A stretch of 18,991 nt of DNA from Chloroflexota bacterium. GTDB taxonomy: Bacteria > Chloroflexota > Anaerolineae > Anaerolineales > Anaerolineaceae. A program made the translations under genes and the position numbers. Location of the stretch: NCBI GenBank assembly GCA_012800995.1, contig JAAZIH010000140.1, positions 1 through 18,991 of the forward strand, in the 5' to 3' direction. Position 1 is the stretch's first letter. Each line of letters opens with the position of its first letter. Shown piece by piece: positions 2,259 to 17,086 of the stretch. The notes beneath the pieces were generated by a model. That model was not told where the DNA came from. It saw only the letters and a program-made list of their open reading frames with translations, and searched no databases.

Positions 2259-2265
2259 TTTGACT

Positions 2266-5244
2266 ATGAAATTAGGCTTAGATCTTCAAGACATTATTTT
2301 CAAGCTCCAGACTTACTGGGCTGGGCAGGGCTGTTTGATTTGGCAACCCTACTACTCCCAGGTCGGTGCCGGCACCATGAACCCTGCCACTTTCCTGCGC
2401 GTGCTGGGTCCTGAGCCCTGGAAAGTAGCTTATCTTGAGCCTTCCGTGCGCCCTGATGACGGACGTTACGGCATAAACCCCAATCGGCTTCAACAGTTCT
2501 TCCAGTACCAGGTCATTCTCAAACCTGACACCGGCAACCCACAGGAACTTTATCTAAACTCCCTGCTCGCCCTGGGCATCGACCCCGCCCAACACGACAT
2601 CCGCTTTGTGGAAGACAACTGGGAATCACCCGCGCTGAGTGCCTGGGGCCTTGGCTGGGAAGTTTGGCTTGACGGGCAGGAAATCACCCAATTCACCTAT
2701 TTCCAACAGTCCGGCGGTGTACCACTGGAGGTCCCATCGGTTGAGATTACCTATGGTCTCGAACGCATTGCCATGACCTTGCAAAACATCAACCACTTTA
2801 AAGATATCCGTTGGAATGGCGAGCGCACTTACGGTGATGTTTACCAGGTTGCCGAACGCGAACACAGCAGCTATTACTTTGAAAAAGCCGATGTTCCCCG
2901 CTTGCGCGAAATGTTCCGCCTCTTCGTGGAAGAAGCTGAAAACGCGCTTGAAGGTGGCTTAGTCCTGCCAGCCTATGACAACATCGTCAAATCATCGCAC
3001 ACCTTCAACATTATGGACTCGCGTGGCGCGGTGGGTTTTACCGAACGCCAGGCGCTTTTTGGCAAAATGCGCGAACTCTCCCGTCGTGTCGCCGAAGCCT
3101 ACATTGCCCAGCGTGATGACATGGGCTATCCCTGGCTAAAAACAGAACAAGCCGAACTTGAGCTCGAACCTGTGGCCCTGCCAGTTGTCGACACCAAATA
3201 CGCCGACTTTTTGCTCGAAATCGGCACTGAAGAACTCCCCGTTGCCGATCTCGACGACGCGCTGGAACAACTCCAGCAAAGTTTCACAAAACGCCTGACT
3301 GACGCGCGTTTAAGCTATAGCCAGCTTGAAGTCCTGGGCACGCCCCGTCGTTTGAGCGTACTCATCAAAGACCTGCAAACCGCTCAGGAAGACCGTAAAG
3401 TTGAACTCAAGGGTCCACCCGCAGACCGCGCTTTTGATGCCGATGGCAAACCCACTAAGGTAGCCGAAGGTTTCGCGCGTGGCAAAGGTGTGGATGTCAG
3501 CGTGCTTGAAGTCAAAGACTTTGATAACGGACGCTATGTTGTGTTAAGCATGGAAGAAAAGGGCAGAAGTGCCATGGAAATCCTTGCCGAACAACTCCCG
3601 GAAATTTGCAATAGCATCCATTTCGTTAAATCAATGCGCTGGAACCAGAGCAAGGTGGCATTCTCGCGCCCGGCGCGCTGGCTTGTAGCGCTTTTGGGTG
3701 AACATGTCGTGCCCTTTAGTTTCGCGGGTCTGAAAAGTGACCGCCTGACCCGCGGCATGCGCTTTTCAGCCGAAGCTGTTTGCAGGCTGAAAAGCCCCAC
3801 AGACTATTTACCTTACCTTGAACGCGAAGGGATTGTTTTGGACCCCAGCCAACGCCGCGATATGATTTGGCAACAAGCCCGGACACTTGCTCAAAAAACA
3901 GGTGGACAATTGGAAGAAGACCCCGCGTTACTGGACGAACTCACCAATTTGGTCGAACGCCCCACTGCATTGTTGGGCAGCTTCGACAAGCGCTATCTTC
4001 AAAACTTACCCCCTGAAGTGCTCATCGCGGTAATGAAAAAGCACCAGCGCTACTTCCCTGTGCTTGATGCCGATGGGAATCTCAGCCGACACTTTATCAT
4101 CATCCGCAATGGCGACGATAAAAACGCTTCCATCGTCGTGGATGGTAACTTGCAGGTTATTTTGGCACGCTTTGCCGATGCTGAATTCTTCATCAAAGCT
4201 GACCGTGAAAAAGCCTTGGAAGATTTTGTGCCCGACTTAGCTCAGCTCACTTTCCAAAAAGAACTCGGCTCGATGCTCCAAAAAACCACTCGCATCGAAA
4301 AGCTTAGCCAACAATTAGCGGAAACGCTCGCGCTTGACACCGCGCAACAAAAAACAACAGCGCGCATTGCCAGACTTTGCAAGGCTGATTTAGCCACTGA
4401 TATGGTTGTAGAAATGACCGCCCTGCAAGGCGTGATGGGCAGATATTACGCGCGCCTGTCCGATGAGCCCGAAGCGGTCGCAGAAGGCATATTTGAGCAT
4501 TATTTGCCCCGTAGTGCCGATGACATGCTCCCCACCCAAGTTCCCGCGACGGTTGTGGGCATTGCTGATCGACTGGATTCCATCGTAGGCCTTTTCGCGG
4601 TGGGCTTAGCGCCAACTGCCAATAAAGACCCCTTTGCCTTGCGTCGTGCGGCTTTAGGACTGAACCAAATTCTTATTGGACTTGAGCTTGATTTTGACCT
4701 TCAAAACGCGTTGCGACTTGCTGCTGAAAACTATGATCTGGACATTTCGGATGAAGTTTTGCAAAACGCGCTTGAGTTTATCCAAGGTCGTTTACACGGC
4801 GTTTTATTGGACAAAGGCTACCGCTATGATGTCGTCGAAGCGGTTGAGCAAGTACAGTCTTCCAATCCCGCGAAGGCTAATCGCTGCGCGGAACTGTTGA
4901 ATAACTGGGTGCAAAAACCTGAGTGGGAGACCCTTCTGCCCGCTTACAGCCGTTGCGCGCGCATTACACGCAACATCAGCGAAACCTACCTGCTTGATCC
5001 AGAAGTCCTGCAAGATCCAGCAGAACACGCGCTCAATGAGGCTTTAAGTCAACTTGCGCCAGGCAGGTTTGAAGAAGCGCTCCATGCAGTAGAGCAACTC
5101 GTACCGAGTATCAACACCTTTTTTGACAAGGTTTTAGTTATGGCAGAAGATGAAAAAGTGCGCCAAAACCGTCTTGGCTTACTCCAGAACGTGGTCGCGC
5201 TCTTATCGCCATACGCTGATATTTCTAAACTGGAAGGCTTCTAA
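2266..5244 (+). CDS. glyS: Glycyl-tRNA synthetase, fused alpha and beta chains
   Basis: This cytosolic enzyme charges tRNA-Gly with glycine. Most bacteria with this type use two genes, glyQ (alpha, about 300 residues) and glyS (beta, about 690). Here one 992-residue chain carries both. Residues 1 to about 300 are the class II catalytic alpha part ([19 protein letters not shown], the Trp-rich [19 protein letters not shown] segment, and [10 protein letters not shown] near 160). The beta part starts near 311 with [11 protein letters not shown]. It includes KKHQRYFPV near 590, the [13 protein letters not shown] segment near 782, and a C-terminal anticodon-binding region from about 860. A stretch of about 15 residues joins the two halves without a stop or frameshift. 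Fused forms are known in chlamydiae and some other lineages. The start is set at ATG 2266 by the ribosome site. It is a single-gene unit with its own promoter, ending at the hairpin at 5277-5313. Confidence 0.97.
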
Positions 5245-5341: not shown

Positions 5342-6313
5342 TTATTCCCATTTTTGGACCACACCCAGGCTAACAAGTTTGCGAATGGTTTCAAGTCCTT
5401 CAGTAAGCGTTTTGCCTAAATAAGTTCCGCCTAATTTTTCTTGAACGGCGGGCTTATCATCCAGATATCTGCCAAAATAAAGCAGACGCGGCTTGGTTGA
5501 CAGTTTGGCTAATTGGGACGCGAAGTCGCGCATCAGGTAGGCTGTTGCCTCCTCGCCAACATAGAGACAGATAAACTTCGGTTTCGATATATGCGAATAG
5601 TCCAAAATATCTTCAATGGGCAAATCCTGCCCCAAATATTCCACAAAGAAGCCAGCTTGTCGCATTAACACAGCCAACATCAAAACATCGAGCTCTTTGG
5701 TCTCTCCTGGCCCGCTCCCAAGGAGGGTCAGCGCGCCCTCTCGCACGACCGGCAAACTGGTCATAAGGTTGAGCAGCTTGCTTTTGATATGCTGCGTTGA
5801 AACATGCACAGTCGCCATCGGAATGCCACCTTGATACCAGGCATGTTCCAATAATGCTACGCTTGGCTGAACGATTTCCTCAAAAATGGTTATTAAATCG
5901 AAGTACTTGCGCATTTCATCAACCACAGCCAGCAAACGGGTTTCATTGTGCGCAATCAATGCGCTTAGCATAATTTCGGCATAATCCCGGGCGGGCATGG
6001 GAGGTTTAAGTCGTGGTAGTTCAGGCTCCACTTTTTGTACACTTTCAGGCCAAGCACCATTTTCGCGAATATCATTAAACTGTTTTACAACCTGGCTAAT
6101 GCTCATCCCGGAATCTAATCGGCTTTTAACCCAAAGCAAGAGCTGAACGTCTTGCTCAGAATAAAGCCTGTAACCATTCTTAAGACGGGTGGGCTCTAAA
6201 AGCTCATAACGGCGCTCCCAGGCACGAAGGGTTACGGGTTTAATACCTGTGCGCGCCTGCACAGCCTTTATCGTAAAATGGGGCGCGGTAGAATAATTGC
6301 TGATACTGCTCAT
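5342..6313 (-). CDS. MerR-family regulator with CarH-like cobalamin-binding domain
   Basis: The 323-residue protein is a cytosolic DNA-binding regulator. Residues 12-80 form a MerR winged helix (FTIKAVQARTGIKPVTLRAWERRY, then NGYRLYSEQDV). Residues about 110-180 match the helical cap and 190-315 the Rossmann-like B12-binding part of the CarH/LitR group. In that group a W-x9-EH motif and an E-x-H motif hold cobalamin. Here the first reads W159-x9-V169-H170 and the second reads G203-E-T-K206-E, so the lower axial His is Lys. Cobalamin binding, if any, must differ from CarH. The gene shares ATGA (6310-6313) with the upstream CapA-type gene. Its AGGAGGA ribosome site (6318-6324) lies inside that gene, so the two are translationally coupled. 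Targets unknown. Autoregulation of this block is an inference. Confidence 0.9.
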   Translation of the reverse strand: MSSISNYSTAPHFTIKAVQARTGIKPVTLRAWERRYELLEPTRLKNGYRLYSEQDVQLLLWVKSRLDSGMSISQVVKQFNDIRENGAWPESVQKVEPELPRLKPPMPARDYAEIMLSALIAHNETRLLAVVDEMRKYFDLITIFEEIVQPSVALLEHAWYQGGIPMATVHVSTQHIKSKLLNLMTSLPVVREGALTLLGSGPGETKELDVLMLAVLMRQAGFFVEYLGQDLPIEDILDYSHISKPKFICLYVGEEATAYLMRDFASQLAKLSTKPRLLYFGRYLDDKPAVQEKLGGTYLGKTLTEGLETIRKLVSLGVVQKWE

Positions 6314-8729: not shown

Positions 8730-10016
8730 TTGCAGGTCCCAAAGTATTATTTTCCGGGCTTCGAACAGGTACCATCTGAGCTTGATGGCGTGATGGTTTT
8801 CGCACCAATCCCTGAAAAAGACGAAGATGAAGTCCGTTCATATGCTTGCCCACAATGTGGCGGGCATTTGAAATTTGATGTCAATTCTGCAGGTATGGCT
8901 TGTATTTACTGTGGCTACACTGCCCCAGTCGCCACAAAGCAGGTTGGCAAAAGCGCCCAAAGCTTTGAGTTTACCCTTGAAAATGTCCAAGCCGCCGAAC
9001 AGGAATGGGAAACAGACCGCCAGCTTTTGCACTGCAATAATTGTGGCGCGGAACTGAGTTATCCCAAAGGTGCTGTGGCAGCCACTTGTCCTTATTGTGG
9101 TTCGAACAAAGTAAATCTTAGCTTGCCCAAAACCAAATCTTTACGCCCACAGGTTCTCTTACCCTTCTCCGCTACACCCGAGGCACTCAAACCACGCATT
9201 CAGGAATGGTTGAGCCAAGGCTGGATGCACCCCAAAACATTAAAAGATGCCGCCCAAATTGACAAGCTATCGCCCATCTATCTACCCTACTGGACTTTTA
9301 GCACGGCAATTGACGCAAGCTGGGAAGCGGAGGTGGGCCATTACGAGACCGAAACCTACTATGATTCCTCCAGCAAGTCATATAAAACGCGTCAGGTTTT
9401 GCGTTGGCGCTGGGAGAGTGGCGCGATTAGCCACCAATTCTCCGATATCACCATCAACGGTGTAAATCCTCAGCGCATCAACCATGCTATGCTCTCCGCG
9501 ATTGAACCGTTTAATCTGAGCGGATTAGTGCTCTTTTCGCCCGATTACCTGGTTGGGATGAATGTGCAAGCCTATGAAACGCCACTTAAAGAGGCATGGG
9601 AGTATGCCAAACAAGAAATTCGAACTGCGACAAACAGACTTTGTGAGAGAGATACCGGAAGCAGCCATGTGCGAAACATGAGCATTGATATGAGCTACGA
9701 TGATGAGCAGTGGCGTTACTTGCTTTTACCTGTTTATCTGTCTGGCTACAGTTACGGAGCCAACTATTACAACTTCATGCTCAACGGTCAAACTGGTAAA
9801 TTGGCAGGTGTCAAACCAGTAGACTGGAAGAAAGTGCGCACGGTCACCTGGCTTGTTGCCCTCATCCCCTTGCTTATCGCCCTTATCAGCCTGATTATCT
9901 CGAAAATAAGTGGCAGTGGAGCCTTGCCGGTCTTTAGCGGATTGATAGTTGTTCTTGGAATTGTTATATCCATAGCGCTTTATGTTCAAGCGAAAAACGC
10001 GGAGAAGATTACATGA
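8730..10016 (+). CDS. Double zinc-ribbon membrane protein
   Basis: The 428-residue protein begins at a TTG codon. Two zinc ribbons are plain: Cys40/Cys43 with Cys58/Cys61 (ACPQCGGH and ACIYCGY), and Cys102/Cys105 with Cys120/Cys123 (HCNNCGA and TCPYCGS). A conserved-looking middle part of about 240 residues follows (LSPIYLPYWTFSTAIDASWEAE, LLPVYLSGYSYGANYYNFMLNGQTG). Two membrane segments close the chain at about 370-391 and 398-421. The ribbons should face the cytosol. Similar proteins in databases often carry a PriA/helicase name because of the ribbons, but there is no helicase domain here. The next gene encodes a shorter relative and overlaps by ATGA. I cannot assign a reaction. Roles in membrane quality control or trafficking of a protein partner are only guesses. 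Confidence 0.85.
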   Translation: MQVPKYYFPGFEQVPSELDGVMVFAPIPEKDEDEVRSYACPQCGGHLKFDVNSAGMACIYCGYTAPVATKQVGKSAQSFEFTLENVQAAEQEWETDRQLLHCNNCGAELSYPKGAVAATCPYCGSNKVNLSLPKTKSLRPQVLLPFSATPEALKPRIQEWLSQGWMHPKTLKDAAQIDKLSPIYLPYWTFSTAIDASWEAEVGHYETETYYDSSSKSYKTRQVLRWRWESGAISHQFSDITINGVNPQRINHAMLSAIEPFNLSGLVLFSPDYLVGMNVQAYETPLKEAWEYAKQEIRTATNRLCERDTGSSHVRNMSIDMSYDDEQWRYLLLPVYLSGYSYGANYYNFMLNGQTGKLAGVKPVDWKKVRTVTWLVALIPLLIALISLIISKISGSGALPVFSGLIVVLGIVISIALYVQAKNAEKIT

Positions 10017-11059
10017 AAGAACAAGAAACTATTAATCGCCACGAGCCCACCCAAGGCAAATCACATGATTGCCCTGCCTGTCAGCGCGCATTTATAGTGC
10101 CGTCAGGATGGCAAGCTACTCCGTGCCCTCTCTGCCAACAAGCTTTACTACAGGTTTCATCAAACACGATGGATTCAGCCCCAATTGAGCTCATTGTCCC
10201 ACCTGCCTTAGATGCGCAAACCTTAAGTATGCGATTATCCCAGTTCACGAAAGGCAGTGCTTTTCCATACCCAGACTTCAAGGCTGAAAATCTGGGAAAA
10301 CGTTTGGTTTTGGTTTATTGGCCTGTTTGGCTGACTGACGCTGATCTTGACGGTGAATGGGATGCTGTATTTGCTTATGATTACCAGGTTGTATCCTCCC
10401 GCGAGAAAATGGGGAACGCCGGCTGGAGTAGCCAGGACGTGATCAAAACCCGGATAAAAGAAGAGCCTCGCAAGGGTTTCTTGAAACGCCATTATGATAA
10501 CGTGCTCTCACCCGCGCTTCATACACACGAGCAACGGCTTTCTCAGCTTGGCACGGTTGACCTAATGACCGCGCATAGCTGGCAAGCTATTAATACTGCC
10601 CAAAGTCTTGTTCAAAAAGAAACTCTCCACCCACATGAGCTCGAAGATGGGGTTAAAAATCAAATGGCTAATCTCGCAAGCGTGGACTGCCGAAAAGCGT
10701 CTGGGGCACAACATCCCAGGTCATTCACGTTCTATGGTGAATATAAGAACATGAACTGGACGAAAGGAATCGTACCCATGTTCACCACCTACTACGTGGA
10801 CGACAAGGGTACGCGCTACCCTATTGCGATTAATGGACAATCTGGCACGGTCTATGGACACCGAATGGCTTCAACAAAGAAAGCCTGGCTCTTCACCGGC
10901 ATCTTGCTCGCTTTAGCCATCATTTTGACGCTTGTGTTTTATTTCGCTAAAGCTGATTATTTTCTATGCGCATCTGTAGCACTCGTTCTAGCCTTCGCGC
11001 CAATCATCTATGCTGCCATCTGGAATAATAAGGAACGCGTTAAACCGCCCCTGGCTTAA
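10013..11059 (+). CDS. Single zinc-ribbon membrane protein, paralogue of the preceding gene
   Basis: The 348-residue product has one zinc ribbon (Cys20/Cys23 and Cys38/Cys41, DCPAC and PCPLC). It then repeats the plan of its neighbour: YWPVWLTDADLDGEWDAVF parallels YLPYWTFSTAIDASWEAE, and AINGQSGTVYGHR parallels MLNGQTGKLAGVK just before two C-terminal membrane segments (about 293-312 and 318-335). This suggests an old tandem duplication followed by loss or gain of a ribbon. Its ATG shares ATGA with the stop of the first gene, and GGAG stands 8 nt upstream. The two products may work as a heteromer; that is inference. No catalytic motif is recognised. Confidence 0.85.
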   Translation: MKEQETINRHEPTQGKSHDCPACQRAFIVPSGWQATPCPLCQQALLQVSSNTMDSAPIELIVPPALDAQTLSMRLSQFTKGSAFPYPDFKAENLGKRLVLVYWPVWLTDADLDGEWDAVFAYDYQVVSSREKMGNAGWSSQDVIKTRIKEEPRKGFLKRHYDNVLSPALHTHEQRLSQLGTVDLMTAHSWQAINTAQSLVQKETLHPHELEDGVKNQMANLASVDCRKASGAQHPRSFTFYGEYKNMNWTKGIVPMFTTYYVDDKGTRYPIAINGQSGTVYGHRMASTKKAWLFTGILLALAIILTLVFYFAKADYFLCASVALVLAFAPIIYAAIWNNKERVKPPLA

Positions 11060-11068
11060 AGGAATCTT

Positions 11069-11422
11069 ATGCTTGTCTATGTATTCATCTTCTTGTTCTA
11101 CTCCCTGGGCACATACTTAGCCATAACCCGCGATGGTTCGGAGCTTTCCTTATGGTTTTTGGCTTTTGGCTTAGCCCTTGATATCGCGATGCTTTTCTTT
11201 GACTGGATTGGCGCAAAATATGCCCCCCGCTTAGGCGAGGGAGACTTGGCCGCAAAGTTGTTACGCGTATTGTCGTTTTTCTTTTTTGGTTTAGCTTTCT
11301 TTTTGCGCATTCTCCCCAAAATTAAAAGCTTTAAATATATTATTGGAATAGCAATTAGCGTGTGGATAATCTTTTTCGCGCGTTCCTTATCACTCCATTT
11401 TAGAAAAAAGAGGTCTAAATGA
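11069..11422 (+). CDS. Small multi-pass membrane protein
   Basis: The 117-residue product is mostly hydrophobic, with about four membrane segments (roughly 2-18, 27-45, 65-83 and 86-105), a short loop [11 protein letters not shown] between the second and third, and a basic tail HFRKKRSK. I know no family. AAAGGA lies 6 nt before the ATG. The stop overlaps the upp start (ATGA), so it is translated within this operon. It may be a partner of the zinc-ribbon membrane proteins, judged from position only. Confidence 0.75.
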
Positions 11423-12056: not shown

Positions 12057-12097
12057 ACAAACAAGAAATGACTCTTTAACGAGTCGTTTCTGTTTGT
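12057..12097. terminator. Long hairpin between convergent upp and methyltransferase genes
   Basis: Left arm 12057-12074 (ACAAACAAGAAATGACTC) pairs with right arm 12081-12097 (GAGTCGTTTCTGTTTGT), giving about 17 pairs with one bulged A, one G-T pair and a 6-nt loop. T tracts are weak on both sides, but the T-rich right arm and the position fit a shared terminator. Confidence 0.75.
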
Positions 12098-12108: not shown

Positions 12109-13488
12109 TTACTTCCGTTTCATGAGATACATCGTGCGCTCTGAGCCCGTCACGGGTTTTTCATCCAAAATTGTGTAATATTCAGAAAACGCTTCTTTAA
12201 ATTCCCCAGGGTTGTAGTCCGGAAAAATATCCAAGCGTGAGCTCAAAAGACGCACCACCTGGGAATCCTGTTTAGGAACAAACTCAATAAGAAGATGCTC
12301 ACCCAATTCAGCAAAACTGCGTGCAACTTCCCTTAAAGGCACGTTGTTGGCAATCGCCATATGGTGAATCAAAGCCAATGCCATAATCAAATCAGCCGGC
12401 CCACGCTCTTTGAGTGAATCGCGTTCCTGATTATGCCAGCCAATTGACGGAGATGGATTCGTCAAATCCATTAGCAGTGGCAGCATGAACTTTTCTTTTT
12501 TCGATTTAACGATAGCGTAGTTTTGTTGAACAGCACCTGGATCAATATCAAAAGAAACGGTTGAGATACCCAAATCAGAGGCACAGCGGCTGAATTCGCC
12601 CGTATTGCCACCTAAATCCCATACCGTTTTAGGATTGATTTGCTTAATGAAATCTGCCACCAGGTCCCGTTTTGCCTCAAAAGAACTTTCTGTGTAATTA
12701 TTATCCTGATAATAATCTGCCCACTCAGTCATAATAGTCTTGACCTTAAGCGAGCGCACAACCGTAAGCAGGCTATCAAGCAGGTTATACAATGCTTGTT
12801 TTGACACTTTCCCGGTAAGCTCTTTTTGAGACAGTTTTTGATCGGCGTACTTTTGCTGGCTCTTGGCGTGGATATGAATGTGCGTTGCCAAACCAAAATT
12901 GAGTTTTGTGCTCTTGGGCAGTAATGCCGATGCTAAATCCAGAGGAATACCGTCTATATAGTTACGCATTAAAGCAAGCAAGCGGATATCGGTCTTCGCC
13001 ATCAAAGCCAAAGGCGCAAGAAAATGCTGGCAAAACTGTTTATATGCCACCCATGGTAAACCTTCTTTATATGCTTCAAACGAGAGCGTGTCAATAAAAA
13101 TTGGACGACCCTCGTGAAATTGGATGTTATATGCGCTGGCGTCTTTAAGCACCATGCCGTATTCTAAAGCGCGTCGCGCGATAGAAAGCGTTAGGATTGC
13201 CGCGTCTTTATATTGATTGAAGCACCATTCATAAGGATACGATATAAAATCAAGTTGTAAGGGCTTGATGATTTTATAAGCTTTGTCAGATATGGGCGAA
13301 AGGTCAAGCTCTGCTTCCTGGTGAGGTATCAGGGCATTGGCTTTACTCAGATGCTGGTAAAGGCCGGATGACATCAGCATATCAAAATCTTCTTTATAAG
13401 AATGATTTACCTGCCGATAAAACTCGCCATCCCGCTTGAACATAAACCCGCTTGGGTCACGAAAAGACGCGCTTACTTTTTCTGCCAT
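12109..13488 (-). CDS. Two-domain protein: kinase-like N-terminus and SAM methyltransferase
   Basis: The 459-residue protein has a C-terminal class I methyltransferase domain (about 270-459): motif I VWDLGGNTGEFS at 289-300, an acidic Asp314-x-Asp316 after the next strand, and LALIHHMAIANNVP at 371-384. The first 250 residues hold FKRDGEFYRQV, YPYEWCF (85-90) and GMVLKDASAYNIQF followed by RPIFIDTLSFE. This resembles the catalytic loop (Asp116, Asn121) and metal Asp (Asp133) of aminoglycoside-phosphotransferase-type kinases. Databases often call relatives simply SAM methyltransferase or NoeA-like. GAGG sits 5 nt before the ATG. The small YLDPGAGS membrane protein lies 102 nt upstream and the membrane sulfatase-like gene before that. 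A role in modifying a surface glycan or lipid-linked sugar is inferred. Confidence 0.85.
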   Translation of the reverse strand: MAEKVSASFRDPSGFMFKRDGEFYRQVNHSYKEDFDMLMSSGLYQHLSKANALIPHQEAELDLSPISDKAYKIIKPLQLDFISYPYEWCFNQYKDAAILTLSIARRALEYGMVLKDASAYNIQFHEGRPIFIDTLSFEAYKEGLPWVAYKQFCQHFLAPLALMAKTDIRLLALMRNYIDGIPLDLASALLPKSTKLNFGLATHIHIHAKSQQKYADQKLSQKELTGKVSKQALYNLLDSLLTVVRSLKVKTIMTEWADYYQDNNYTESSFEAKRDLVADFIKQINPKTVWDLGGNTGEFSRCASDLGISTVSFDIDPGAVQQNYAIVKSKKEKFMLPLLMDLTNPSPSIGWHNQERDSLKERGPADLIMALALIHHMAIANNVPLREVARSFAELGEHLLIEFVPKQDSQVVRLLSSRLDIFPDYNPGEFKEAFSEYYTILDEKPVTGSERTMYLMKRK

Positions 13489-13590
13489 TATTTCCTCATT
13501 TCCAATGCTTAAGGCAATCTAATGTCACTGTACCCGACTTCAATACAGCTATGCCTCTCTTTAGAAGCTATTCAAGAAGAAGTAAAACGT

Positions 13591-13830
13591 CTATTTATCT
13601 TTCTGGTCTTCAGTTATGTCGATTACTTCAGAAGATTCGATTTCTGTTGGGTCGAACTCAGCATCAGCACCTTTTTTACCAGTAAAAAAACTCTTGATCT
13701 GTTTCCAAAATACCCGTATAGCAACACCCGCGCCCAACAGAACCCCCAGTATGACTTGAATGATCAAGCTACCTGCCCCTGGATCAAGATATTGCTTTGG
13801 TTTCATTAGAAAAGAAAACAGTTGTGACAT
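13591..13830 (-). CDS. Small single-pass membrane protein with YLDPGAGS motif
   Basis: The 79-residue product has the motif YLDPGAGS at 14-21, then one membrane segment at about 22-41, a basic-aromatic stretch FWKQIKSFFTGKK and an acidic tail. From memory, short proteins with a YLDPGSGS-like motif followed by one or two membrane helices and a W-K-I-x-F end often sit beside sulfatase-like and methyltransferase genes; no function is established that I know of. AGAGG lies 4-5 nt before the ATG. Opposite-strand frames here are longer but lack ribosome sites. The order sulfatase, small protein, methyltransferase on one strand supports a common process. Confidence 0.8.
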   Translation of the reverse strand: MSQLFSFLMKPKQYLDPGAGSLIIQVILGVLLGAGVAIRVFWKQIKSFFTGKKGADAEFDPTEIESSEVIDITEDQKDK

Positions 13831-13908
13831 ATGACCTCTTTAGTTAGTATTTAAGTAGAAAAGACTTCAAAAAACAAGCCTTTGTTATCTTATCGTTATC
13901 AAAGTATT

Positions 13909-13983
13909 ATTTTAGCACAGGGATTTATATTTTGGTGTAAGGACTTAGTCAGATGTATTACAACTGTAACGGAAATAAAACAA
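13909..13983 (-). promoter_or_regulatory. Candidate promoters for the small membrane protein and methyltransferase genes
   Basis: In the 221-nt gene-free stretch, TTGTTT (13983-13978) and TAATAC (13960-13955) are 17 nt apart on the minus strand. A second candidate is an extended -10, TGCTAAAAT, at 13917-13909 with no clear -35. The rest of the stretch is AT-rich, with a repeated TGAAACGC (minus strand) near 13996-14012. I see no gene in it. Confidence 0.4.
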
Positions 13984-14051
13984 AATCCACCGCGTTTCAT
14001 ATTGCGTTTCACGTTTTGTGTATTATTTAGGATTAAACTTACTTGTCCCAT

Positions 14052-16001
14052 CTAATTTTCCTGTGGTTTCGGAACATCAGTCTCGTTAAATTCAAACCCG
14101 TCTTTCTTTAATCGGTCAATCATTAATTGATAAACCGTGTCAATATCAATAATGTCATCTGAACCGCAAACAGATACATAGCCAGGGACGGGACGGATAT
14201 TCCACTCATAAGTTTCAAGATCCAACTCTATATACCTGCCACAATTTTGAACAGCCATCAAATCAAACTGATAAAAAGGCGGATTATTGTATTCATTATC
14301 AATGGTTAATGCTTCTCCATCGCCATCACTATGCTTTAGTCGCACGCTAATAAGAGCTCTGTATTTATCTATAGGCGCGAGCAAAGACTCACCCGCCATC
14401 CATTCCGGGATTTCTGCTCCAAGATAGTCTAATATCGTTGGAGCGATATCGATATTTTGAGTATCTATCAAAATTTCGCCTGTGTAATCTGCCTCTGGAA
14501 TAAGCAAAATCAAGGGTATGGGCTTGTCGGTGACAAATTGCATAGCATGATCAGATCCAATAATAATAAGCGTATCATTTAAAATACCTGCGTTTTCCAG
14601 CTCCGTATAAAGACGTCTGATTGCATCATCAAAATCGAGTATGGCATCCTCATAGAAAGAAATATCCCAGTCAGCTTGTTGGTTAATGTCTAAATCCGCC
14701 GAAAACACTCGATTAAGGGGTTTAAAATCTGGCCCATGCGTGCCCATCCAGTGGATATGAAGAAAAACCGGACGTTCTGTATCCGAGAGAATCTCAGTCG
14801 CCCAGCTTATTTTCTGCTGGTCCTTAAACGCATCCGATGATTCAATTTGCCCTGTCATTTGCTGAAACTGGTTTTGCATTATATTTACCAGGAAGATATG
14901 TTTCAGCCTTGGAATGAGTCGGGTTTGTAATTCATAGAGGAAATATTCGTAATTTGTTGGCAAAGGCAATTTTCTGAAGCCGAAAAGCCGTGTTGTATTT
15001 GCGCCTCGTCCATTCACATAATCGAAAGCTTCTTTAAAATTTAGTTCGATAGCGTCAGCATAGTATTCATAACTATATTGGCCACAATAATATCCTGATT
15101 GTTTCAAGACAGCCGGAAGACTTTGGTAACTATCTTCTCCCCTAAGGATATCCGGTCGATACAAAACCCGAGTCTTTGTTGGGTATTTACCGGTTAGTAT
15201 TGACGTAACTGAGCCGCCTGTGTTGCCGGAGTTTGAAAAATGATTGCCCGCAATTAATGCTCGTGAAGCACCTGATTTTAAGAAAGGTGTTGTGTTTTTT
15301 TCATAGCCATAAACAGACATGTACTTTGTTTCAAGCCCATCCGCGGTGATGAGCACAACGTTCTTTTTATCTTGGACCCCCGATATTTCCAGAGCATTAT
15401 GGGGCTTTTGCATAAGCCCAAGGACAAAGCCGGTTATCACGATAATGACCATCAAGCCCATTACGGTAGCAACAAGCCTCTTGTTTTTTTCTTTTGTTCT
15501 GCGAGAAAGATTCTCAATCAAAGCCTTATGAAGCCTGGCAAAATCAAAAACGAAAAAGCCGGCAAGCAATAAAAAACCCATCGCATAATACAATCGCACG
15601 AAGCGCCTGCTGGTGATAATTCCTATTGACATCGTTATATAAGTCAAGTTATCGACAAACAGCAGAATGGTTGAAGCCATAATGAAAGCTGGGATAATCA
15701 TCATTAATCGGCTACCCCAATGGTTGCTGTCAAATTTTTTATGAACAAGGAAGTAAAGAACTGTCTGTATCAAACAAGCCAGCAAAGTTAACAAAGCAAT
15801 ACTGAAAAGCGGAATGGTCATTTTTTCAATTAGTGTTGTCTGGCTCATTGAAGAAGGCTTTGTAATCATAAAAAGCCATTCAGAACCCACATAAGCAAAA
15901 GTCACAAATAGAATCATCAGCCAGCCAGCTAACAAACGCACAAGATGCTTTGATTTTTCTTTTTGGGCTGGATTCAAGTCAGTTTTGTTCTCTTTCATCA
16001 T
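14052..16001 (-). CDS. Membrane-anchored sulfatase/phosphoglycerol-transferase-like protein
   Basis: The 649-residue protein has five predicted N-terminal membrane segments (about 23-45, 63-85, 99-117, 122-155, 177-198). An extracytoplasmic alkaline-phosphatase-superfamily domain follows, the plan of LtaS and related phosphoglycerol or phosphoethanolamine transferases. Metal and nucleophile positions are visible: LITADGLE with Asp221, SNSGNTGGSVTSILTGKYP with Thr261 as the likely nucleophile, HIHWMGTHGP with His417 and His422, and GSDHAM with Asp484 and His485. A Thr in place of the Cys/Ser of true sulfatases favours phosphotransfer over sulfate release. Three starts are possible: TTG 16004, ATG 16001 and ATG 15998. 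ATG 16001 overlaps the mutY stop by one base (TGATG) and is preferred. No strong ribosome site is seen, so coupling to mutY translation is likely. Substrate unknown. Confidence 0.88.
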   Translation of the reverse strand: MMKENKTDLNPAQKEKSKHLVRLLAGWLMILFVTFAYVGSEWLFMITKPSSMSQTTLIEKMTIPLFSIALLTLLACLIQTVLYFLVHKKFDSNHWGSRLMMIIPAFIMASTILLFVDNLTYITMSIGIITSRRFVRLYYAMGFLLLAGFFVFDFARLHKALIENLSRRTKEKNKRLVATVMGLMVIIVITGFVLGLMQKPHNALEISGVQDKKNVVLITADGLETKYMSVYGYEKNTTPFLKSGASRALIAGNHFSNSGNTGGSVTSILTGKYPTKTRVLYRPDILRGEDSYQSLPAVLKQSGYYCGQYSYEYYADAIELNFKEAFDYVNGRGANTTRLFGFRKLPLPTNYEYFLYELQTRLIPRLKHIFLVNIMQNQFQQMTGQIESSDAFKDQQKISWATEILSDTERPVFLHIHWMGTHGPDFKPLNRVFSADLDINQQADWDISFYEDAILDFDDAIRRLYTELENAGILNDTLIIIGSDHAMQFVTDKPIPLILLIPEADYTGEILIDTQNIDIAPTILDYLGAEIPEWMAGESLLAPIDKYRALISVRLKHSDGDGEALTIDNEYNNPPFYQFDLMAVQNCGRYIELDLETYEWNIRPVPGYVSVCGSDDIIDIDTVYQLMIDRLKKDGFEFNETDVPKPQEN

Positions 16002-17086
16002 CAATATTCAGACTTCTTTCTTATCAATTGTTCGGATATCATCCTATCAACTTTTCCCATTGGGAATTGTGCTAAGTCTTTGGGCTTTACCCATTTATAG
16101 CTTTCACACTCCGGCTCTCCGTGGGGTGTGAGTAACGATTCACCTATTTGTAAACGGGAAAGAAAAGCATGTAAGGTGATTTTATAGTGGGTATAAGCAT
16201 GTTTATAAACACCAAAACCTTCGCCGACATCAATCAAAACGCCCAGCTCTTCCATAATCTCGCGTTTGATGCCATCCTGCAAGCTTGTGTCGCTTTCCTC
16301 TAATTTACCTCCAGGGAATTCCCACATACCTCCCAGCAGATCGCCTTTGGCACGCTGCGTGATAAGCACTTTATCGCCCTCTTGTATCACCGCGGCGGTC
16401 ACAACATAATGAGGTACTTTGAGTTTTTCTTTGCGCTTTGGCAAATTATCTGCTGTACCCTGTTGATTGGCTTGACAAAGCTGAAGCAATGGGCACAATT
16501 CACAAAGGGGTTTGCGAGGCGTGCAAATGGTCGCGCCCAAGTCCATTAGAGCCTGGTTAAAATCACCCGGACGATTCAGCGATAATGTCTCCGCTGCCAG
16601 TTCTTGCAATCGCGCTTCCGTTGCTTTTTCCTCCAATTCTCCATCAATCGCAAACAAGCGCGCATAAACCCGACGAATGTTGCCATCAACCGCTGCTACA
16701 GGCTTATTAAAAGCAATCGACGCAATTGCTGCAGCGGTATAGGGACCGACACCGGGCAGTTTGAGCAAGTTGCTCAATTCGGACGGTACTTTGCCATTAA
16801 AATGCTCGACAATGTACCTGGCGCTACGGTGTAAACTCAAAGCCCGCCGGTAGTAGCCCAATCCTTCCCAGAGCTTCAAAACAGCTTGTTCTTCGGCATT
16901 TGCCAGGGCTTTGACACTTGGCCACGTTTCAATAAAACGCAGGTAATAGGGCAATACTGTATCGACCTGAGTCTGTTGCAACATAAATTCAGATACCAGA
17001 ACATGATAAGGCACGGGATGAGAACGCCAGGGGAGTACCCTGGCGTTTGTGTCGTACCAAGTCAGTAACAGTTTTTGGACAGGCAT
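16001..17086 (-). CDS. mutY: A/G-specific adenine DNA glycosylase
   Basis: The enzyme removes adenine mispaired with 8-oxoguanine. The 361-residue product has the HhH-GPD core (LPGVGPYTAAAIASIAF, 110-126), catalytic Glu33 in SEFMLQQTQ, Asp134 in AAVDGNIRRVYAR, and the iron-sulfur cluster cysteines Cys188, Cys195, Cys198 and Cys204 with the standard C-x6-C-x2-C-x5-C spacing. Residues about 225-350 are the Nudix-like domain that senses 8-oxoG. Its box (GGKLEESDTSLQDGIKREIMEELGV region, 259-283) is one residue longer than the usual form and has Asp266 near the usual Glu, in line with a binding and not hydrolytic role. The gene starts 2 nt after the stop of the small gene upstream and shares one base with the sulfatase-like gene downstream. 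Confidence 0.96.
   Translation of the reverse strand: MPVQKLLLTWYDTNARVLPWRSHPVPYHVLVSEFMLQQTQVDTVLPYYLRFIETWPSVKALANAEEQAVLKLWEGLGYYRRALSLHRSARYIVEHFNGKVPSELSNLLKLPGVGPYTAAAIASIAFNKPVAAVDGNIRRVYARLFAIDGELEEKATEARLQELAAETLSLNRPGDFNQALMDLGATICTPRKPLCELCPLLQLCQANQQGTADNLPKRKEKLKVPHYVVTAAVIQEGDKVLITQRAKGDLLGGMWEFPGGKLEESDTSLQDGIKREIMEELGVLIDVGEGFGVYKHAYTHYKITLHAFLSRLQIGESLLTPHGEPECESYKWVKPKDLAQFPMGKVDRMISEQLIRKKSEY

What the first reader, a model, noticed from the sequence alone, without database searches (positions are those of the whole stretch)
12109..16001. Sulfatase-like transferase, YLDPGAGS mini membrane protein and kinase-like/methyltransferase fusion as a functional set
Three genes on one strand encode an LtaS-like membrane phosphotransferase, a 79-residue membrane protein with a YLDPGAGS motif, and a two-domain kinase-like/methyltransferase. 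I recall the same partners side by side in distant bacteria, which would argue for a shared, uncharacterised surface-polymer or lipid-head-group modification. Kinase, phosphotransferase and methyltransferase activities could act in series on one glycan, as in capped polysaccharides. The link is inference from position and domains.
Basis: partly seen in the sequence, partly recalled or inferred. Interest (0 to 1): 0.75.

Follow-up and report, generated by a model that had tools for sequence, protein, structure and literature searches.

The report
Widespread NoeA-like kinase-methyltransferase gene trio
Three neighbouring genes in an uncultured bacterium belong to a gene set that recurs in many bacterial phyla, includes relatives of the legume-nodulation genes noeA and noeB, and may put a methylated phosphate on a surface or secreted molecule together with a tiny, overlooked membrane protein.

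Summary
In detail: an LtaS/PbgA-like membrane enzyme (AP), a 79-residue membrane protein (mini, YLDPGAGS) and a kinase-methyltransferase (MT). The linkage is ancient. Of 45 strong MT loci from 301 Chloroflexota genomes, found without using the mini, 42 have the mini within 200 bp on the same strand; 28 have an AP gene within 1 kb (17 on the opposite strand), against about one by chance. Of 29 mini loci from many phyla, 24 have MT and 24 have AP. MT is homologous to nodulation protein NoeA; Sinorhizobium records read nodL, unnamed mini, noeA, noeB. So the MT-AP pair is in print (PMC9758233), function unknown. New here: the mini as near-constant partner, also in the nod operon, and a residue parallel to WbdD, which phosphorylates a sugar and methylates that phosphate: its H132, H133 and R203 align to invariant H375, H376 and R451. 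AP has Thr (rarely Ser) at the sulfatase formylglycine position. Best reading: a WbdD-like methyl-phosphate enzyme with swapped domain order, working with a membrane mini and an outer-face phosphotransferase-like enzyme. The substrate and the roles of mini and AP are inference.

The parts
14052..16004 (-). AP: membrane-anchored alkaline-phosphatase-superfamily enzyme (sulfatase-like, LtaS/PbgA-like; position of NoeB), 650 aa
15219..15221 (-). AP codon T262, predicted nucleophile position (at the formylglycine position of S1 sulfatases)
   Evidence: Thr 31, Ser 1, gap 1 of 33 rows in A3; Thr 41, Ser 5 of 46 rows in A5; alignment to sulfatases
13591..13830 (-). mini: 79-aa membrane protein of the YLDPGxGS family
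   Evidence: homologues; no Pfam/NCBIfam family
13768..13791 (-). YLDPGAGS motif of the mini (residues 14-21)
12109..13488 (-). MT: NoeA-family kinase-methyltransferase, 459 aa
   Evidence: 35% identity over 99% of length to Sinorhizobium meliloti NoeA, E 1e-74; AF2 pLDDT 91.3
12751..13488 (-). MT residues 1-246, atypical kinase domain (D116, N121, D133 invariant)
   Evidence: motif-level match to the WbdD kinase, not significant on its own
12109..12741 (-). MT residues 250-459, class I methyltransferase domain with H375, H376 and R451
   Evidence: hhalign to the WbdD methyltransferase Prob 97.7, E 1e-11 for a single comparison; fold search
12064..12091 (.). Terminator-like inverted repeat between the end of MT and the convergent upp gene; the number of such sites in the region is at chance level

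Best explanation
The three genes are a functional set of the NoeA/NoeB type. In the cytoplasm MT uses its N-terminal kinase domain to phosphorylate a hydroxyl on a lipid-linked or secreted glycan (or related envelope molecule), and its C-terminal domain methylates that phosphate, as WbdD does in E. coli O9a but with the domains in the opposite order. The mini sits in the membrane with its YLDPGxGS end outside and a basic tail inside, and ties the modification to the membrane and to the AP enzyme. AP, anchored by N-terminal helices with its active site outside, then transfers or removes a phospho-group on the product. Shown here: gene linkage and co-occurrence, homology to NoeA, conserved residues, predicted folds. 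Inferred: phosphate methylation (about 0.6), glycan as substrate (about 0.6), roles of mini and AP (about 0.35).
For: MT-anchored census: 42 of 45 loci with mini within 200 bp on the same strand, AP within 1 kb of MT or mini in 28 of 45. For the 44 genomes other than the window's it is 27, where 0.9 (AP profile, 427 hits) to 1.3 (higher of profile and PF00884 counts) would be expected by chance. In 60 near relatives 19 have both MT and mini, 37 neither, 2 MT alone (both cut by contig ends) and 2 mini alone (one degenerate, one weak). Of 9 genomes with a single AP-profile hit, that hit lies beside MT in 7 as listed; for an eighth (G222) the place was not listed but the local census shows AP there. 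WbdD H132, H133 and R203 align to H375, H376 (29 of 29) and R451 (28 of 28 rows that reach it); in WbdD H132A, H133A and R203A each left no detectable methylation (PMC3482155 section 6). WbdD is the top Foldseek hit, narrowly; the methylphosphate capping enzyme MePCE is among the tied top rows of VIA-align. AP has Thr, rarely Ser, where sulfatases carry formylglycine, and lacks the next Arg.
Confidence: 0.5

Rival explanations
1. MT methylates a sugar hydroxyl or amine, as NodS does, and the kinase domain phosphorylates a different site or is a pseudo-kinase that only binds the substrate.
Against: R25, D116, N121 and D133 are invariant in 29 of 29, not expected of a dead kinase; R451 is present in 28 of 28 rows that reach it, and PMC3482155 says its WbdD counterpart has no structural equivalent in NodS or RebM and none in the O8 sugar methylase.
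Confidence: 0.25
2. The set modifies a lipid head group or polyprenyl carrier rather than a glycan.
For: AP relatives such as LtaP, EptA and PbgA act on or bind membrane lipids (matches; functions recalled); the neighbourhood is not dominated by glycan genes.
Against: nodL-mini-noeA-noeB lies in a Nod-factor operon; WbdD acts on a glycan; some glycosyltransferase and MBOAT genes are among the neighbours.
Confidence: 0.25
3. AP and mini form a sensor or regulator of envelope synthesis, as PbgA/YejM does, and MT is its effector.
For: PbgA/YejM heads the Foldseek list of the AP model; mini plus AP occur without MT in 4 of 29 loci.
Against: AP keeps the Thr/Ser, Asp and His positions in nearly all rows, which points to catalysis.
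Confidence: 0.15
4. The linkage is hitchhiking on mobile DNA without joint function.
For: Copies on plasmids (65 records, 57 of them Sinorhizobium) and on contigs binned as viral.
Against: Gene order changes while the partners stay together, MT and mini are present or absent together, and in the one genome that keeps the mini at the same site without MT and AP the motif is degenerate.
Confidence: 0.03

Closest known systems
NoeA/NoeB of Sinorhizobium (nodL-noeA-noeB operon) and Lani_1194/Lani_1195 of Legionella anisa (PMC9758233)
   Same: MT is homologous to NoeA over its full length; NoeB joins the AP alignment with the same Asp, Thr, His positions; mini, MT and AP side by side in Sinorhizobium
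   Different: The window's AP is 650 aa against 553 for NoeB and about 12% identical to it in the alignment; order in the window is AP-mini-MT; no nod genes in the window. The section of the paper that I read does not say what Lani_1193 is (65% of 816 neighbourhoods); it may be the mini, which I could not check.
WbdD of E. coli O9a (kinase plus phosphate methyltransferase, O-antigen chain terminator)
   Same: Same two activities predicted; H132, H133 and R203 matched by invariant H375, H376 and R451; kinase loop D...N...D shared at motif level
   Different: Domain order reversed, 459 against 708 residues, no fixed link to an O-antigen cluster seen. A domain-level picture of Lani_1194 beside WbdD is already in print (legend of Figure 6D); the residue match is from here.
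LtaS/LtaP, EptA-type phosphotransferases and PbgA/YejM
   Same: N-terminal membrane helices plus AP-superfamily domain, Thr at the nucleophile position
   Different: Sequence similarity to LtaS and EptA is low (E 3e-12 and 3e-10); donor and acceptor unknown
S1 sulfatases (PF00884)
   Same: Domain fold and Pfam family; best sequence matches in the PDB
   Different: Thr (rarely Ser) replaces the formylglycine residue, and the Arg of the sulfatase motif is missing

Membership tests
NoeA family (kinase-methyltransferase) | Full-length homology to NoeA | tested here: met
   35.2% identity over 99% of the query, E 1e-74; A1 alignment
NoeA family (kinase-methyltransferase) | Conserved PKA-like D166, N171, D184 positions | tested here: met
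   D116, N121, D133 in 29 of 29 rows; that these are the PKA positions is my reading of PMC9758233 and of the WbdD motif alignment
NoeA/NoeB cassette | AP-fold gene beside the NoeA homologue | tested here: met
   window; within 1 kb in 28 of 45 MT loci
NoeA/NoeB cassette | Role in Nod factor modification | not testable with these tools
   PMC9048898 calls it hypothesised (passages)
WbdD-type phosphate methyltransferase | His-His-Arg phosphate site (H132, H133, R203) | tested here: met
   hhalign, HMMER for the His pair; conservation 29/29, 29/29, 28/28
WbdD-type phosphate methyltransferase | Essential Tyr16 | tested here: inconclusive
   aligned to Y260 (16 of 29); invariant Y259 is one residue away
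WbdD family proper | Methyltransferase-kinase-coiled-coil order | tested here: not met
   order is kinase then methyltransferase, the chain ending with the methyltransferase; so it is filed as working like WbdD, not as a WbdD
S1 sulfatase | Cys or Ser made into formylglycine, in CxPSR | tested here: not met
   window has Thr262 and no Arg; some relatives have Ser there (1 of 33, 5 of 46)
LtaS/EptA-type phosphotransferase | Membrane-anchored AP domain with Thr nucleophile and Asp/His metal ligands | tested here: met
   the roles of the residues are recalled from LtaS/EptA, not from a call
LtaS/EptA-type phosphotransferase | Transfer of phosphoglycerol or phosphoethanolamine | not testable with these tools
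   needs an assay
PbgA/YejM | LPS-binding regulatory role | not testable with these tools
   fold similarity only

The most novel reading that the evidence does not exclude
A bacteria-wide methyl-phosphate modification system: NoeA-family enzymes cap a glycan with methyl phosphate in the cytoplasm, and a tiny, periplasm-facing membrane protein whose conserved YLDPGxGS end and in-membrane Gln form a docking or hand-over site joins that step to an outer-face phosphotransferase. Rhizobia took over the whole cassette, including an unnamed small gene between nodL and noeA, to alter a symbiotic signal or surface molecule.
Probability: 0.3. Interest if true: 0.82.

Novelty: new variant of a known kind. 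Interest (0 to 1): 0.62.

Why it matters
noeA and noeB were described as host-range nodulation genes in 1995 (title seen in reference lists), and the papers I saw still give no reaction for them. The residue match to WbdD makes one reaction directly testable: phosphorylate, then methylate the phosphate. The mini gives them an unnamed third partner inside the same operon. The same trio occurs in many phyla, so the answer would name a widespread envelope modification that is at present unannotated.

Tried and rejected
A second copy of the set in the window's genome: the only other DNA match (C28, E 7e-4, 46 bases) is to the intergenic stretch between AP and mini, not to one of the genes; rejected.

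AP as an ordinary sulfatase: rejected on the missing formylglycine residue and Arg, although sulfatases are its best sequence matches in the PDB. The name 'ribosomal protein L11 methylase PrmA' given by a source to some homologues: rejected, alignment and fold point to the NoeA family.

A single polysaccharide gene cluster as the standard context: not supported. Of 168 neighbour proteins listed I gave 120 to the scan; the families are mixed, and only the 25 commonest of 139 were shown.

This is an absence in these lists only.

Control for the His-His-Arg site with other methyltransferases: one search found 2 candidates and aligned none well; one search took 14, of which 9 aligned at E under 0.05, 2 cover the His site (Glu-His, not His-His) and none the Arg. 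Too small to count.

Rows dropped or weak: of 69 genomes with any MT-profile match, 24 had only weak matches (E 4e-5 to 9e-4) and were left out, leaving 45. Three of the 45 have no mini (L148 about half an MT gene, L149 a broken MT, L150 a divergent MT, E 2e-57). The weakest mini calls in that set have E 1e-7 to 1e-9 (L126, L098, L124, L114). Loci cut by contig ends are still counted as misses. L039 and L042 look nearly identical, and L024 and L132 carry the same mini, so counts hold a few duplicates. The AP profile was built partly from neighbours of mini or MT genes. Its background count is a lower bound, as only 28 candidates were scored in the richest genomes, hence the second estimate with PF00884. 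Two of 96 mini rows (L056, L128) did not fit the motif pattern and were left out of the 94.
Full report
What is there. The minus strand of 12109-16004 holds three genes in the transcription order AP (14052-16004), mini (13591-13830), MT (12109-13488). Downstream they meet the convergent upp gene, and upstream AP overlaps the end of a MutY-like gene by four bases. AP is a PF00884 protein, MT has only a weak methyltransferase match, and the mini has no family in Pfam or NCBIfam. The genome (G000, 1.38 Mb in 296 contigs, 81% complete) has just two PF00884 matches, one of them this gene. Named relatives are Anaerolineaceae (L024; P0020), so the window is most likely from Chloroflexota.

Is the trio real? 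Two samples were used. First, MT was searched as a profile in 301 Chloroflexota genomes. I kept 45 genomes with strong matches and dropped 24 with weak ones. Of the 45 loci, 42 have a mini within 200 bp on the same strand (40 upstream, 2 downstream of MT); 28 have an AP gene within 1 kb of MT or mini, 11 on the same strand and 17 on the opposite one. For the 44 genomes other than the window's, 27 have AP that near, where 0.9 to 1.3 would be expected from the number of such genes per genome. Nine of those genomes have one AP-profile hit only; in 7 the listing shows it beside MT, in G222 the place was not listed but the local census has AP there, and in G279 it is on another contig. Second, 29 loci were found through the mini in GTDB species genomes (capped, exact peptide patterns): Anaerolineaceae, Bacteroidetes, several proteobacterial groups, Acidobacteria, Planctomycetes, Omnitrophota, Nitrospinaceae, Leptospiraceae, Lentisphaeria and Clostridiales. 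MT is present in 24 of 29 and AP in 24 of 29. Four loci have mini and AP but no MT (L025, L036, L039, L042); L032, with neither, ends soon after the mini. 29 of 33 AP proteins match PF00884, but they are far diverged: apart from L024 (39%) and L026 (32%) identity to the window's AP is 11-18%. So the third partner is constant as a superfamily, not shown to be one orthologous gene.

Co-occurrence. In 60 near relatives, 19 have both MT and mini, 37 neither, 2 MT only (G011 and G015, where MT touches the contig end) and 2 mini only. One of the latter, G021, has upp and mutY on either side of a degenerate mini (HIDLGSGR in place of YLDPGxGS); neither MT nor AP is seen at the site, and no MT was found in that genome. 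The other, G056, has a weak match of a sister type. The G021 case, a single one, fits a motif that is needed only with its partners.

MT is a NoeA homologue. tblastn against plasmids gives S. meliloti NoeA at 35% identity over 99% of the query, E 1e-74. In S. meliloti 1021 a small open frame with YLDPGTGS lies between nodL and noeA. Three annotated records (S. meliloti ml47, Ensifer canadensis, Rhizobium sp. T1470) list it as a 71-residue 'hypothetical protein' in the order nodL, mini, noeA, noeB (in the last two one or both of the neighbours bear general names). In a tree of 29 MT proteins NoeA groups with a Nitrospinaceae sequence (100/100, long branches) and not with the two other alphaproteobacterial rows, which fits horizontal gain. 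PMC9758233 (section 8 read) describes the Legionella homologue Lani_1194 as kinase plus methyltransferase, its NoeB-like neighbour Lani_1195 with an alkaline-phosphatase fold, and neighbours Lani_1193 and Lani_1195 in 65% and 38% of 816 neighbourhoods; it does not say there what Lani_1193 is. PMC9048898 (passages) says NoeA and NoeB are hypothesised to modify the Nod factor; PMC3899959 (passages) notes noeA orthologues outside Medicago symbionts, one in a non-symbiont; PMC4053727 (passages) notes a truncated noeA in a strain that fails to nodulate many Medicago genotypes.

What is known and what is new. Known: NoeA/NoeB, their kinase-methyltransferase and AP folds, and their conserved neighbourhood. 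New as far as my searches go (open-access library only): the mini as near-constant partner and its place in the nod operon, the WbdD residue correspondence, and the joint presence and absence. 'YLDPG' occurs in no paper of the library, though Lani_1193 may be the same protein under another name.

Noticed in passing
L128 (G021:C19:10865-23083), mini at 5986-6219 minus: Same-genus genome with upp and mutY flanks and only a degenerate mini (HIDLGSGR) at the site, no MT or AP: looks like a natural loss case.
   Followed up: yes
L162 6001-6177 minus; L163 5185-5370 minus: A sister mini type, YIDPSTGGMLFQ, without MT in the stretch; an AP gene lies about 2 to 3 kb away.
   Followed up: partly
L154, L155, L156 (viral contigs): Three of five contigs binned as viral carry mini, MT and AP in a row; whether they are truly viral was not tested.
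   Followed up: partly
L053 7059-7307: Small gene between nodL and noeA in S. meliloti 1021 with a signal-peptide-like start and YLDPGTGS; not in that record's table here, 'hypothetical protein' in others.
   Followed up: yes
L149 (G151): MT gene broken into several pieces, no mini or AP nearby.
   Followed up: no
L127, L129: Close relatives with two or three tandem AP genes before the mini and one after MT.
   Followed up: no
window 8730-11422: Two zinc-ribbon-looking membrane proteins and a 117-aa membrane protein in a row; the latter two have no convincing Pfam family, the first was not tested.
   Followed up: no
window 2260-5244: Long frame that reads like a fused alpha-beta glycyl-tRNA synthetase (judged from the translation, not searched).
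   Followed up: no
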